DNA from: an uncultured Gemella sp.
GTDB taxonomy: Bacteria > Bacillota > Bacilli > Staphylococcales > Gemellaceae
Direction of reading: 5' to 3'
Assembly: GCA_927911695.1 (NCBI GenBank)
Contig: CAKMQO010000219.1
Coordinates: forward strand, 1-11,270
Length of the DNA: 11,270 bases
The notes under the pieces were generated by a model. The model ran no database searches and had not been told where the DNA came from. It saw only the letters and a list, made by a program, of their open reading frames with translations. A program made the translations under genes and the position numbers. Shown here in pieces: positions 1 to 3,679 of the stretch (position 1 is its first letter; every line of letters starts with the position of its first letter).

Positions 1-163
1 CTATTCAAATATTTTAAGTATGGTGGCGGACGGTTCCATCTACTTTAATTGTCATTTAGACAATTTAAAGTGGATATTACACCTTGAAATTAAGCTTAAA
101 ATCTTAATTTCACCGATGGAACTTTTTCAAGTTCCATTATCACCATTACAAAATATTTGAGTA
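1..163 (+). ncRNA. Candidate structured RNA element 1 (cloverleaf with loop-to-stem complementarity)
   Basis: No ORF is evident here, but almost every base can pair. The closing stem has two parts, 2-15 with 150-163 (14 bp, one U-G wobble) and 20-25 with 141-146 (ATGGTG/CACCAT). Inside lie three hairpins: A, 42-53 with 59-71 (12 bp, one bulged base); B, 85-94 with 103-112 (10 bp, 8-nt loop); C, 115-124 with 129-138 (10 bp including one G-U, 4-nt loop). The loop of B, CTTAAAAT at 95-102, is the perfect complement of ATTTTAAG at 11-18 in the 5' closing strand. Bases 33-40 (GTTCCATC) can also pair with 115-122, competing with hairpin C. Both wobble pairs (U4-G161, G115-U138) are valid only in plus-strand RNA. 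I do not recognise a known RNA family. It could also be a DNA-level palindromic mobile element. It may start before base 1. Confidence 0.5.
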
Positions 164-185
164 AAATTAATAATACTATTTAAAA

Positions 186-210
186 ATTAATCAATTTATT
201 TATTAATCAA
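186..210. repeat. Short direct repeat ATTAATCAA in the linker
   Basis: ATTAATCAA occurs at 186-194 and again at 202-210, a 16-nt period. It lies in the AT-rich linker (164-221) between the two folded elements. In such AT-rich DNA this may be chance. I see nothing else definite in the linker. Confidence 0.3.
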
Positions 211-221
211 GTTTATATTTT

Positions 222-366
222 TCTTACTGTTTTGTAGTAGCTGAAGTGAAACACTTTTGTGTTTCACTGCGAGAAAATGAGACTACAGGCTCATTTTCTA
301 ACCTCCATATCCTTTTGAGATAACAAAAGATATGGAGGTGTCGCAAGCTACACTAAACAGAAAAGA
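222..366 (+). ncRNA. Candidate structured RNA element 2, same architecture as element 1
   Basis: The two-part closing stem is 227-232 with 355-360 (CTGTTT/AAACAG) and 237-242 with 346-351 (GTAGCT/AGCTAC), with a small internal loop between. Three hairpins follow: A, 245-254 with 259-268 (10 bp, TTTT loop); B, 272-281 with 290-299 (10 bp, 8-nt loop); C, 301-310 with 330-339 (10 bp) continuing after one bulged C as 312-317 with 324-329 (6 bp). Loop B, ACTACAGG at 282-289, can pair with 231-238 in the 5' closing strand as six Watson-Crick pairs plus two G-U pairs that exist only in plus-strand RNA. Element 1 has the same relation at the equivalent position, and B is a 10-bp stem with an 8-nt loop in both, although the sequences are unrelated by eye. 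No known family recognised. A mobile palindromic repeat is the main alternative. Confidence 0.5.
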
Positions 367-368
367 AA

Positions 369-398
369 ATAATAGAAGTTATAAGAATGCAGTATCAA
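369..398 (-). promoter_or_regulatory. Possible minus-strand promoter facing element 2
   Basis: On the minus strand TTGATA (393-398) and TATTAT (369-374) are separated by 18 bp, each 5 of 6 to the sigma-A consensus. Transcription would begin near 362, almost exactly at the edge of element 2. This conflicts with the plus-strand orientation suggested by the G-U pairs, and near-consensus boxes are common in DNA this AT-rich. Confidence 0.3.
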
Positions 399-406
399 TC
401 AACACA

Positions 407-447
407 AAAAAACTGATAAAGGAACATTATTCCTCTATCAGTTTTTT
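407..447. terminator. Bidirectional intrinsic terminator after pgi
   Basis: Stem 407-418 with 436-447 (six A-T pairs plus ACTGATA/TATCAGT, sharing the junction A-T pair) continues, after an A-C mismatch, as AGGAA/TTCCT (420-424 with 430-434) around a 5-nt loop. T runs follow the stem on both strands. On the minus strand it ends the rapZ-yvcK-pgi transcript shortly after the pgi stop. On the plus strand it would end any transcript coming through the two folded elements. Confidence 0.85.
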
Positions 448-460
448 ATTTTATTCTAGA

Positions 461-1808
461 TTATTTTAATCTTTCTTCTAATTCTGCTTTTAAGTCTTCA
501 ATCCTGGTTTTCCAAGAAGAGCAAACATATTTTTCTTATACGCTTCTACTCCTGGTTGGTCAAATGGATTTAGACCTTGCATATATCCAGAAATACCTAC
601 AGCTTTTTCGAAGAAGTATACTAAGTATCCGAATGTAAACTCACTCATATCTGGAAGTTCTACTACAAAGTTAGGTACTCCTCCATCAGTGTGAGCAAGA
701 AGAGTTCCTTCAAATGCTTTAGTATTTACAAAATCCATAGTTTTTCCAGCTAGGTAGTTAAGTCCATCTAAGTTATTTTCAGCTTCTTTAAGTTCAATAT
801 CTTTATTTGGAGATTTAACTTTTAAGATAGTTTCAATTAGAATACGACGTCCTTCTTGAACATATTGTCCCATAGAGTGAAGATCAGTTGAGAAGCAAAC
901 ACTTGATGGGTATAATGCTTTTCCGTCTTTACCTTCAGACTCACCGTAAAGTTGTTTCCACCATTCGTTGAAGTAAACCATTGATGGTTCGTAAGAAACA
1001 AGAATTTCAATTAATTTACCTTTTGTTGTAATACGTTACGCATTACAGCATATTGGTAAGCAATGTTAGTACTTAAATCTGGTGAAGAAAGTTCATCTTG
1101 AGCTAATTTAGCTCCAGCCATCATTTTATCAATATCAATTCCACTTACAGCAATTGGAAGTAATCCTACTGCAGTAAGAACTGTGAAACGTCCACCGATA
1201 TCATCAGGTACTACAAATGTTTCATATCCTTCATCATCAGCTAATGATTTTAATGCTCCACGAGCTTTATCAGTAGTAGCGAAGATTCTTTCTCTTGCTC
1301 CTTCTTTTCCATATTTTTCTTCAAGTAATTCTTTGAAGATACGGAATGCAATCGCAGGCTCAGTAGTTGTACCAGATTTAGAAATTACGTTTACAGAGAA
1401 ATCTTTTCCTGTAGTTTTTAAGTAATTCACTAATTCTTGAGTATAACTTGAAGAAATAGTGTGACCTACGAAAAAGATTTGAGGAGTTTTTCTATCTTTT
1501 TCATAGAAGTTATAGAAACTATCATTAAGCATTTCAATTGCTGCGCGAGCTCCTAAGTAAGATCCACCAATTCCGATAACAACAAGTACATCAGAATTAC
1601 CTTGAATTTTTTTACTAGCTTCTTTAATTCTAGCGAATTCTTCTTTATCGTAGTTAGTTGGTAAATCAACCCATCCTAAGAAGTCACTACCAATTCCAGT
1701 TTTATTGTGTAATTGATCGTGAGCAACTTTCACATAACCTTCCATATTTTTCACTTCTTGTTCGTTAAAGAAGTTAAGTGCTTTCGAATAATCAAATTTT
1801 AAGTGCAT
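461..1808 (-). CDS. pgi: Glucose-6-phosphate isomerase, interrupted by two single-base frameshifts
   Basis: Interconverts glucose-6-phosphate and fructose-6-phosphate in the cytoplasm, serving glycolysis, gluconeogenesis and supply of fructose-6-phosphate for amino sugars. The start at 1808 (MHLKFDYSK) has AGGAGA at 1815-1820; an in-frame ATG at 1835 overlaps the yvcK stop and is unlikely. Visible motifs are GIGGSYLGA (about residues 79-87), SKSGTTTE (143-150) and [14 protein letters not shown]. Two base losses break the frame. The first, at 1021-1024, joins ...NVLQQK to [17 protein letters not shown]. The second, at 500-501, restores the end as [14 protein letters not shown] or similar, with the stop at 461-463. 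After correction the protein is 449 aa, and the catalytic Glu (GESEGK), His (DLHS) and Lys (VEAYK) fall at 290, 311 and 425, the numbers I recall for the Geobacillus enzyme. That argues for sequence error. It is last in the operon, 23 nt after yvcK. Confidence 0.95.
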
Positions 1809-1831
1809 TTTTGTTCTCCTTATTTGTTTTC

Positions 1832-2815
1832 TCACCTTTTATTATAAATCATTGTTGGCTTATCGTCTATAATATAATCGTAAATTAATTCAGAAACTTT
1901 ATCTGCATTATGTCTAATCGTATTATTATCAACGATTCCAACGTCATTATTTTTTATTAATTTTATTCCCAACTCTTCAATTTTTTCATGATCGATTTTG
2001 ACCGGTTCTTGTTTTTCTTTGTGATATTTCGATAAAATACTATCATCAAACTCACGTGAATTAGCAATTACTAAGTCAAATATGTTCTCTTCAACATGTT
2101 TATTAATCGCAAGGATATGATCGCAAACCGAATAATTATCTGTTTCACCATGTTGCGTCATGACATTACAAACATATATCTTCTTAGCATTACTTTCTCT
2201 AATCTTTTCCGACACATTAGAGATTACTAAATTAGGAATTATAGAAGTATATAGACTTCCAGGTCCCATAATAATATAATCTGCCTCTTCTATTGCTTTA
2301 AGTACATCTTCATTAGGTTTAACTCTTGAAGGCGTAATATAAACATGATCTATAACTCCGCCTGCTTTTGTAATTGAAGATTCTCCACGAATAATCTCTC
2401 CATCTGATAATACAGCATTTAATGTCGCTATATCATTAGTAGTCGGCAATACAGTTCCACGTACATTTAAAATTCTACTCATAACTTTTACCGCTGTAGA
2501 AAAATCTCCATGAATATCCGTCATGGCAGCTATCATTAAATTACCAACTGGATGCCCCTTTACTTCACCGCTATCAAATCGATATTGGAACATTTTTTCC
2601 AAATATGGTTCAACATCCGATAATGCTGCAATAACATTTCTTATATCACCTGGAGAAGGAATATTCATGTCACTTCTTATTTTTCCAGAACTTCCTCCAT
2701 CATCTGCTACCGTTACTATAGCAGTTATTTCAAGAGGGTACTTTTTTAACCCTCTCAAAAGAACTGATAATCCAGTTCCTCCACCAATAGCAACTACTTT
2801 TATTTTAGTACTCAT
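1832..2815 (-). CDS. yvcK: YvcK/GlmR family UDP-sugar-binding regulator (gluconeogenesis factor)
   Basis: Intact 327-aa cytoplasmic protein of the YvcK/CofD-like family. The nucleotide-sugar site is visible near the N terminus: IGGGTG (residues 10-15), ADDGGSSG (37-44) and SPGDIRN (54-60). PGSLYTS, which is typical of the family, lies in the middle. In B. subtilis YvcK binds UDP-GlcNAc, supports growth on gluconeogenic carbon, stimulates GlmS and affects placement of PBP1. These roles are family knowledge, not visible here. The ATG at 2813-2815 lies 4 nt after the rapZ stop, so translation is probably coupled; the Shine-Dalgarno is a weak purine stretch inside the rapZ end. The usual Firmicutes order continues with whiA, but here pgi follows. 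No frame damage. Confidence 0.95.
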
Positions 2816-2819
2816 TTTT

Positions 2820-3679
2820 CTACCTACCCTTATTGATATCGCGATGCTCTAAATACACCCTATATCCTAATTTTGAAATATCTTCATGTAATCTTCTTGC
2901 TACGCTAACAGAACGGTGTTTACCACCTGTACATCCAACTGCTATAGCAACTTTATCACGACCTTCATATTGATACTTATCTACCATAAACTTCATAAGT
3001 TCTAAATACTTATCATAAAATTCCTGAGTAACTTCATCCTCAAAAACATAATCATATACTTCACTATCTTGACCAGTTTTTTCTCGTAATTCATTTATAT
3101 AAAAGGGATTTCTCAAGAAACGAACATCGACAATATTATCTGCATCTATAGGAACCCCATATTTGTAACCAAAACTTGAGATTGTAATATGATAACTATC
3201 TTTTTTCTCAATTCCGAAGTCTTCCAATATTTTTTTCTTCAAATCTTTTACAGAAGTATTTGTAGTATCATAAATATAATTTGCAATCCCTTTGATGTCA
3301 TTCATATCTTTTCTCTCTTGAGCAATACCTTCAAGTAAGCTAAACTCAGTAGATAAAGGATGATTTTTTCTAGTTCTTTATATCTATTGACCAATACTTG
3401 ATCATCACTATCTAAAAATAAGATTTTAACATCAAAGTACTCACTTTGTTGTAGTTTTTTTAATAATTCCTTTAAATCAACAAAAATGTGTTTACTTCTT
3501 ATATCAATACTTATCGCTGTTTTATCAATATCTTTTTCTTCTATTATTCTCAAGAAATCTTCAACAACTAATCCCGGTAAATTATCTGTACAAAAATACC
3601 CTTGGTTTTCAAAGACTTGTAATGCTGTATTTTTCCCTGCTCCACTTATTCCTGTAATTATAACTAATTTTTTCTTCAT
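2820..3679 (-). CDS. rapZ: RapZ (YvcJ) nucleotide-binding adaptor, one frameshift
   Basis: RapZ/YvcJ family, about 286 aa once one lost base near 3370-3373 is restored, a normal family length. The N-terminal domain has a Walker A loop, GISGAGKNT (residues 10-18), and the strand ILFLDSDD. The C-terminal domain shows FGYKYG (about 170) and the signature GCTGGKHRS (about 249-257). The frame break falls inside KELRKNHPLS and leaves a 125-aa and a 161-aa piece. In E. coli RapZ senses GlcN6P and directs decay of the GlmZ RNA; B. subtilis YvcJ hydrolyses nucleotides and affects competence. Which role applies here is unknown. Oddity: the Walker A has Asn where the family has Ser or Thr after GK. It is first in the rapZ-yvcK-pgi operon. 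The Shine-Dalgarno before ATG 3679 is weak (GGATGTGAAG). Confidence 0.93.

What the first reader, a model, noticed from the sequence alone, without database searches (positions are those of the whole stretch)
1..366. Two adjacent cloverleaf elements with the same fold and different sequence
Elements 2-163 and 222-366 share a two-part closing stem, three hairpins in a row, a middle hairpin of exactly 10 bp with an 8-nt loop, and that loop's complementarity to the 5' strand of the closing stem (95-102 with 11-18; 282-289 with 231-238). The sequences look unrelated, so the shared design is hard to explain as a recent duplication. It suggests selection on structure, as in a tandem structured RNA. 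The loop pairing cannot fully coexist with the closing stem, so it implies a pseudoknot with partial opening, or a switch. I know of no named family that fits.
Basis: partly seen in the sequence, partly recalled or inferred. Interest (0 to 1): 0.75.

Follow-up and report, generated by a model that had tools for sequence, protein, structure and literature searches.

The report
Mobile cloverleaf repeats targeting gene terminators
The two look-alike folded pieces are an inverted pair from one family of small mobile DNA repeats in Gemella and Streptococcus; in Streptococcus these repeats insert at the stop-signal hairpins at gene ends and leave the whole hairpin duplicated, an unusual insertion mark.

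Summary
The fold is real. The two elements are an inverted pair of one repeat family: element 1 read on the minus strand aligns with element 2 (0 of 500 shuffles as good); on the plus strand it hardly does (local 313 of 500, global 24 of 500). Relatives were found in 6 of 9 Gemella genomes, 31 of 40 genomes of a genus taken as Streptococcus and three further Lactobacillales genera. On a 32-sequence alignment 43 of 45 base pairs show changes on both sides. Copy number reaches at least 50 per genome. Loci with pneumococcal BOX do not match (0 of 12); Rfam holds a partial relative, SSRC8. In Streptococcus the family is mobile and targets terminator-like hairpins: 4 of 13 loci examined give clean filled and empty sites with the whole 25-26 nt hairpin duplicated; 37 of 80 copies have matching flanks above the control 99th percentile, and in 23 of the 28 best the palindrome axis is at the centre of the duplication. 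Eight Gemella sites tested show no duplication. No enzyme was found.

The parts
1..164 (-). Element 1: one complete cloverleaf unit of the family, read on the minus strand (5' end at 164, 3' end at 1)
   Evidence: CM R3 match 120.1 bits on the minus strand (it is in the training set of R2 and R3); orthologues at the same place in 3 of 9 Gemella genomes
2..15 (-). Element 1 outer closing stem, 3' arm in family orientation (partner 150-163)
   Evidence: inverted repeat I4, 93% complementary; helix 1 of A6 covaries
150..163 (-). Element 1 outer closing stem, 5' arm in family orientation
20..25 (-). Element 1 inner closing stem ATGGTG, pairs with 141-146 CACCAT
   Evidence: helix 2, 98.9% cells paired
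141..146 (-). Element 1 inner closing stem partner
116..137 (-). Element 1 hairpin 1 (9 bp, 4-nt loop)
85..112 (-). Element 1 hairpin 2: 10 bp, 8-nt loop ATTTTAAG on the minus strand; the G004 orthologue has loop ACTACAGG, the element 2 loop
32..83 (-). Element 1 hairpin 3 (3-bp base 32-34/81-83, internal loop, long stem)
165..217 (.). AT-rich spacer between the two 5' ends; the pair stands 5' end to 5' end
   Evidence: same order in G001, G004, G009
218..370 (+). Element 2: complete cloverleaf unit, plus strand
   Evidence: R3 match 129.9 bits at 219-370 (in the training set); orthologues in G001, G004, G009 and a second copy in G004
237..242 (+). Element 2 inner closing stem GTAGCT, pairs with 346-351 AGCTAC
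346..351 (+). Element 2 inner closing stem partner
245..268 (+). Element 2 hairpin 1 (10 bp, 4-nt loop)
   Evidence: I12, 100% complementary
272..299 (+). Element 2 hairpin 2: 10 bp, loop ACTACAGG
301..339 (+). Element 2 hairpin 3; at 304-306 the window has TCC where the 4 other e2 copies have GGA, which makes the stem fully paired
406..447 (.). Hairpin with A tract and T tract (terminator-like, after pgi on the minus strand), next to the 3' end of element 2
   Evidence: sequence, by eye; a like hairpin stands there in G001, G004, G009

Best explanation
The region is an inverted pair of non-coding, MITE-like interspersed repeats. Each unit is a ~150-nt cloverleaf whose helices are kept by compensatory change while most letters drift. 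SHOWN in relatives: the family is dispersed and multicopy in Gemella and in a genus taken as Streptococcus. In the latter the whole unit is ~240-260 bp with imperfect terminal inverted repeats, and it has inserted at terminator-like hairpins so that the complete hairpin stands on both sides. INFERRED: the element moves in trans by an unencoded enzyme that recognises the target as a hairpin (extruded cruciform or single strand) and cuts opposite strands at its two feet, so gap filling copies the hairpin; the cloverleaf is the element's own structural recognition part. A new copy keeps a terminator on each side, which would make insertion nearly harmless to neighbouring genes. For the window's own two copies, membership is shown; that they arrived by the same terminator-targeted route is only inferred, since they stand beside two terminator-like hairpins between convergent genes but without a duplicated hairpin.
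For: Inverted pair. Structural family: 32 of 45 predicted pairs with two-sided changes on 12 Gemella copies aligned without structure; 43 of 45 pairs and 96.5% of cells paired on 32 sequences, shuffles 69.6%, slid partners 40-47%. Dispersal: more copies in G001, G004, G008, near-identical copies at different loci in G003 and G007. The same 5'-to-5' order in a G003 composite (L068 1501-1650 minus, 1650-1778 plus at E 3.5e-7). Matches in 31 of 40 streptococcal genomes, 356 in all, up to 50 in one. Terminator target: 14 of 20 G067 copies have a terminator-like hairpin within 85 nt of the 3' side, random stretches of the same loci 114 of 811. Hairpin duplication: 4 loci with empty sites, duplicated target 25, 26, 26, 25 nt; 37 of 80 copies above the control 99th percentile; of the 28 best the palindrome axis is within 2 nt of the centre in 23, median 0.5 nt. 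G450 carries the element at one of these sites in the opposite orientation to G067 (L226 versus L225). Limits and terminal inverted repeats.
Against: No transposase or autonomous partner was found, and none was searched for by protein. Forty-three of 80 copies lack a matching flank above the control; the control maximum was 44, as high as good own scores, since orthologous loci of G067 and G224 were left in the control. At two loci with a hairpin at an empty site (L209, L216) the filled G067 site has the hairpin on one side only (own scores 14 for the same copies L169, L176). None of 8 Gemella sites scores above 22 (control 99th percentile 26), and G003/G007 composites have other ends (TATATATTTATATAC...) and several lie just before genes. 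The window's 3-base hairpin-perfecting difference suggests that templated mutation inside hairpins can make two-sided changes without selection, so covariation is not proof of function. G-U pairs exceed A-C mismatches 45 to 15, which suggests that one strand matters (RNA or single-stranded DNA), not a symmetric cruciform alone.
Confidence: 0.8

Rival explanations
1. The cloverleaf is a functional structured RNA (sRNA or 3'-UTR element) that is transcribed into the neighbouring terminator, spread by duplication, and kept for its RNA fold.
For: Covariation. In 18 of 20 G067 loci the gene on the element's 3' side ends towards it, and 14 of 20 have a terminator-like hairpin there. Rfam RF02616 SSRC8_2, an S. 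pyogenes RNA seen by Northern blot (PMC3675131, passages), matches all 11 streptococcal loci given, below its gathering score: 10 at E 6e-11 to 6e-8, one at 2e-5; 0 of 4 Gemella loci given. G-U exceeds A-C 45 to 15.
Against: G-U is only 1.2% of standard pairs (45 of 3701), low for a structured RNA as I recall typical values; no RNA control was run. Left neighbour genes read towards the element in only 12 of 20 G067 loci. Empty sites and hairpin duplication show mobility. Matches vary from 0 to 50 per genome within one genus.
Confidence: 0.25
2. A lineage of the pneumococcal BOX repeats.
For: Similar size, inverted ends, several hairpins, location between convergent genes and a parasitic, dispersed distribution as described for BOX (PMC3049150, abstract and sections 5, 7, 10).
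Against: R3 finds 0 matches up to E 1 in 12 loci with the boxC pattern. Copy numbers do not go together in the genomes compared: G440 50 versus 0, G224 47 versus 1, G458 9 versus 93. In L240, L241 and L248 BOX copies stand between a stop codon and a single terminator-like hairpin, without hairpin duplication (by eye). The boxE/boxF and other S. suis modules of that paper could not be compared: their letters are not in the text read.
Confidence: 0.1
3. The two-sided changes come mostly from hairpin-templated mutation (quasipalindrome correction), not from selection; the repeats are passive.
For: The window's element 2 differs from the 4 other e2 copies by TCC for GGA in hairpin 3, making it perfectly paired. 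Few one-sided changes.
Against: The outer stem, with arms about 130 nt apart, has two-sided changes in 9 of 9 pairs. Hairpin 2 keeps 10 bp and a loop of 7-8 nt in all 32 rows of A6, an alignment fitted to the structure.
Confidence: 0.2

Closest known systems
BOX elements of Streptococcus pneumoniae / S. suis (PMC3049150)
   Same: Short structured, non-coding, multicopy, intergenic repeats with inverted ends, enriched between convergent genes
   Different: No match to the family model in 12 BOX loci; no hairpin duplication in the three copies looked at; many copies in different genomes
SPRITE (S. [quoted passage not shown]
   Same: Streptococcal repeat linked with terminators
   Different: SPRITE is itself one 18-bp duplex with a T-rich tract; here the repeat is a cloverleaf that inserts at host hairpins
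SSRC8 / Rfam RF02616
   Same: Contains the hairpin 2 - hairpin 3 core (about 147-209 of 281 in most matches)
   Different: Described as an sRNA of S. pyogenes; the present family is dispersed in several genera and all 11 matches stay below Rfam's gathering score
CRISPR spacer integration by Cas1-Cas2 (recalled)
   Same: A palindromic target is duplicated whole because opposite strands are cut at its two ends
   Different: No Cas1 link was looked for; targets here are unrelated hairpins, the insert is a fixed repeat
REP sequences and RAYT (TnpA-REP) transposases (recalled)
   Same: Non-coding hairpin units, often in inverted pairs, thought to be mobilised in trans
   Different: REPs are single short hairpins; no RAYT was sought here; no hairpin duplication known to me
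Group IIC introns (recalled)
   Same: Insert beside intrinsic terminators
   Different: They are ribozymes with their own reverse transcriptase and leave no target duplication

Membership tests
MITE (as described in PMC3049150) | Short, non-coding, AT-rich, highly base-paired | tested here: met
   Element GC 0.29 and 0.36; fold z -12.67; no open frame of 60 aa or more overlaps 1-370
MITE (as described in PMC3049150) | Terminal inverted repeats | tested here: met
   Imperfect ends in streptococcal copies and in G003/G007 composites; for the window copies only the outer stem
MITE (as described in PMC3049150) | Target-site duplication on insertion | tested here: met
   Streptococcus: 4 loci with clean empty sites, 25-26 nt, a whole hairpin. 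Gemella: not seen in 8 sites, so not met for the window itself
MITE (as described in PMC3049150) | Mobilised by a transposase of a related IS | not tested
   No targeted search for a partner was run
BOX element | boxA/boxC sequence modules | tested here: not met
Rfam SSRC8_2 (RF02616) | Reaches the gathering score over the model | tested here: not met
   Best 49.6 bits against 72 in streptococcal loci; no match in the window
Known Rfam RNA family | Match in window 1-370 | tested here: not met
   3 matches up to E 1 in the whole window, none in 1-370, all below gathering scores
REP/RAYT element | Short single hairpin with a Y1 transposase partner | not tested
   Recalled only

The most novel reading that the evidence does not exclude
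A mobile element that is read by shape, both as donor and as target: an enzyme recognises the cloverleaf by its fold and extruded terminator hairpins by theirs, cuts at both feet of the target hairpin and so duplicates the whole terminator. The target duplication would then have no fixed length; it equals the hairpin. This would be integration set by DNA structure, comparable only to CRISPR repeat duplication.
Probability: 0.35. Interest if true: 0.88.

Novelty: new variant of a known kind. Interest (0 to 1): 0.7.

Why it matters
It unites scattered intergenic structures of Gemella, Streptococcus and a few related genera in one mobile family and gives a context to a piece of a catalogued sRNA (SSRC8). 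If the target duplication is set by the hairpin, it points to an unidentified integration enzyme that works on DNA shape, and to a way in which a parasite can spread with little harm: each insertion leaves a terminator on both sides. That is directly testable in non-pathogenic oral streptococci.

Tried and rejected
Rejected: (1) duplication on one strand: element 1 forward versus element 2 is little better than shuffles (local 313 of 500, global 24 of 500 as good). (2) Named RNA family: nothing in 1-370. (3) BOX: 0 of 12 loci. (4) Plasmid or phage carriage: no match for one streptococcal unit (L186) in phages or plasmids; for unit 2 of one G003 composite with flanks one 64-nt match (E 1e-6) in an Arcobacter plasmid, under a response-regulator gene, which is the gene beside that copy; one exact pattern each for a streptococcal and a Gemella form in viral contigs gave 0 and 0. 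(5) Loop to 5'-strand pseudoknot: not kept. (6) The pattern hit in Alkalicoccus (L013) has no such element around it, by eye. (7) A hairpin-only model (R1) gave hits judged false by eye (L038, L045, L046).

Limits: R2 and R3 were trained on sequences that show the fold, and A6/A8 are fitted to it; alignment A5 (MAFFT, no structure given) gave 32 of 45 predicted pairs with two-sided changes by itself. In large searches only 7 candidates per genome were scored, in the Gemella family 150 of 1563-3047, so absences are weak. The matches in genera g181 and g171 (E 1e-9 and 2.6e-7) were not inspected. In some searches, 3 of 40 copies (L179, L181, L189) lacked the anchoring motif and were dropped; one search dropped 6 of 55 copies of its first two sets for the same reason and stopped with an error at the third set; one search replaced it with all 80 copies fetched. 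These 80 are the better-scoring of 356 matches in 40 genomes (G067 20 of 32, G224 20 of 47, G440 15 of 50, G446 5 of 18, G444 12 of 30, G450 8 of 37). The gene orientation count uses 20 of the 32 G067 copies and open frames only. Genus names other than Gemella are inferred: g38 is taken as Streptococcus from the boxC pattern and the Rfam name.

Full report
WHAT IS THERE. The window is from Gemella: the nearest held genome, G001 (40% of sampled words), has a contig of the same length (127780) as G. haemolysans DNF01167 with the same match. Bases 1-370 lie beyond the terminator-like hairpin of pgi; in relatives the next gene on the other side is convergent and ends after a hairpin of its own, so the pair stands between two convergent genes. 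I read that gene as a GntR/UTRA-type regulator by eye; it was not tested.

THE PAIR IS INVERTED. Element 1 on the plus strand hardly resembles element 2 (local 313 of 500 shuffles as good, global 24 of 500), but its reverse complement does (global score 40 against shuffles -10.7 +/- 11.5, 0 of 500; local 47, 0 of 500). The G004 orthologue of element 1 carries, on the minus strand, the very loop of element 2, ACTACAGG. So 'same fold, different sequence' is one family seen on opposite strands. Both are found at this place in G001, G004 and G009. G008 keeps a short hybrid of the two 3' ends in the opposite orientation relative to pgi; G002 and G006 have short intergenic regions without it.

A FAMILY. 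A hairpin model and then a full model found further copies at other places: in G001, G004 and G008, and near-identical sets in G003 and G007. Strong matches (E 1e-3 or better) are in 6 of 9 Gemella genomes; G005 has one at 0.57, G002 and G006 none; 0 of 6 genomes of the sister genus. In G003 and G007 the mobile unit is again two cloverleafs standing 5' end to 5' end (shown by model for L068; by eye for others), bounded by TATATATTTATATACAAAATATT and its near complement. A search of 398 Bacilli genomes gave matches in G001 and in 10 genomes of one other genus, g38; in 395 Lactobacillales, 68 genomes of 4 of 80 genera matched. Two copies from one of the three smaller genera were read and fold alike. 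g38 is taken as Streptococcus because 116 of 284 of its genomes hold the boxC pattern and its loci match an Rfam family named from Streptococcus. In 40 genomes of g38, 31 match, with 356 matches in all, and five genomes carry 30 or more.

STRUCTURE. Before any structure-fitted alignment, MAFFT alignment A5 of 12 Gemella copies gave 45 predicted pairs, 32 with two-sided changes. On A6 (32 sequences, two genera) 43 of 45 pairs have two-sided changes, 96.5% of cells pair, shuffled 69.6%, partners slid by 1-3 columns 40-47%. Hairpin 2 is paired in 100% of cells. On 91 rows there are 3656 Watson-Crick, 45 G-U, 15 A-C and 115 other cells. For the 3' junction 20 of 2000 do, from streptococcal loops such as ACCTTAGG with CCTAAGG; several members lack it.

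MOBILITY AND TARGET. Forty copies from G067 and G224 were fetched; 37 with the anchoring motif were aligned. Conservation falls off at about 90 nt before and 20 nt after the cloverleaf, and the two limits resemble each other as inverted repeats. Outside them often stands the same hairpin on both sides. Own left-right flank similarity exceeds the 99th percentile of pairs between loci in 37 of 80 copies from six genomes: G067 10 of 20, G224 9 of 20, G440 9 of 15, G446 5 of 5, G444 3 of 12, G450 1 of 8 (control maximum 44, orthologous loci not removed). In the 28 highest-scoring, the matched length runs from 18 to 39 (median 25; some of the longest may include similarity of the element ends), and the palindrome axis lies within 2 nt of the centre in 23. 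Orthologous loci in other genomes supply empty sites. Of 13 loci examined (12, in G215 and G577; the L208 locus), four give a clean empty site with one hairpin where G067 has hairpin-element-hairpin: L205, L207, L221, L208; the duplicated target is 25, 26, 26 and 25 nt, the insert 238-258 nt. At L209 and L216 an empty site has the hairpin but the filled G067 site has it on one side only. At L212 and L219 in G215 and at L216 in G577 a broken remnant stands, which my script labelled EMPTY because its motif was lost. The other loci (L210, L211, L213, L214, L215) were filled in each genome found. At the L208 locus G450 has the element in the opposite orientation. In 18 of 20 G067 loci the gene on the element's 3' side ends towards it; 11 of 20 lie between convergent genes. 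A terminator-like hairpin stands within 85 nt of the 3' side in 14 of 20, against 114 of 811 random stretches of the same loci, most of them coding.

WHAT THIS SAYS OF THE WINDOW. Membership of the window's two units rests on model scores (129.9 and 120.1 bits; both were in the training set) and on the direct alignment; the streptococcal hits found with the Gemella-only model R2 are the independent part. Their 3' ends face two terminator-like hairpins, as in Streptococcus, but the two differ, and 8 Gemella sites score 16-22 for flank similarity, below the streptococcal control level of 26. Either the Gemella insertions are old, or this branch inserts otherwise.

MECHANISM. Most likely a non-autonomous DNA element, moved in trans. 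A duplication that is symmetric about the hairpin suggests cuts at both feet of the hairpin on opposite strands; that its length follows the hairpin rests on the flank matches, while the four loci with empty sites all give 25-26 nt. The cutting step, the enzyme and the role of the cloverleaf are inference. The scarcity of G-U pairs fits selection on DNA; the excess of G-U over A-C fits one strand. A caution: the window's element 2 carries a three-base difference that perfects hairpin 3 and is absent from the 4 other e2 copies, a sign of hairpin-templated mutation.

LITERATURE. Searches for BOX/RUP structure, cloverleaf MITEs, Gemella with BOX, SSRC8, S. suis BOX repeats, target duplication with terminator hairpin, RepSU1, Rho-independent terminator with target-site duplication, and interspersed repeats with cruciforms listed no paper whose title or abstract start describes this family or whole-terminator duplication; long lists were seen only in part (15 of 363). 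Seen beyond listings: PMC3049150 (outline with abstract, passages, sections 5, 7, 10), PMC3675131 (passages), PMC10969869 (passages). Supplements and subscription papers were not seen.

Noticed in passing
window about 490-1030: pgi is split in two frames; by eye against L030 the window lacks one A in a run of five near 1021 and one T in a run of three near 501, so sequencing errors in runs are likelier than a dead gene.
   Followed up: partly
window 2820-3679: A rapZ-like gene (named by eye) is also split into two frames (2820-3305 and 3302-3679).
   Followed up: no
window 304-306 against L001-L003, L009: TCC for GGA in element 2, only in the window, turns the hairpin 3 internal loop into a full stem: looks like hairpin-templated mutation.
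   Followed up: partly
L080 about 1558-1735, L033 about 688-890, L121 left flank: A second repeat (GGGAGTGAYTCAAAAATCGTGATTTCG ... AATAAACCAYTGCGTCTATGA) stands in place of or beside hairpin 2 of some Gemella copies; a similar stretch lies beside a streptococcal copy (by eye).
   Followed up: no
L081 minus strand, oriented 1150-1900: In one G003 composite hairpin 2 and the first unit are enlarged by further nested hairpin modules (by eye).
   Followed up: no
L030 about 700-775 (G008): Short hybrid of the left end of element 1 and the right end of element 2 at the pgi site, inverted relative to the other genomes.
   Followed up: partly
L058, L064, L065, L068 (G003, G007): Composites lie directly before start codons with ribosome binding sites, so they may sit in 5' leaders (by eye).
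   Followed up: no
L240, L241, L248 against L245: BOX elements inserted between a stop codon and a terminator-like hairpin, with a short target mark at most (by eye).
   Followed up: no
L213 against L277: A second locus where the element may be inverted between two streptococcal genomes.
   Followed up: no
L326, L327 (G781, G958): Members in another Lactobacillales genus carry GAGACCTTAGGCTC of the streptococcal hairpin 2 letter for letter.
   Followed up: partly
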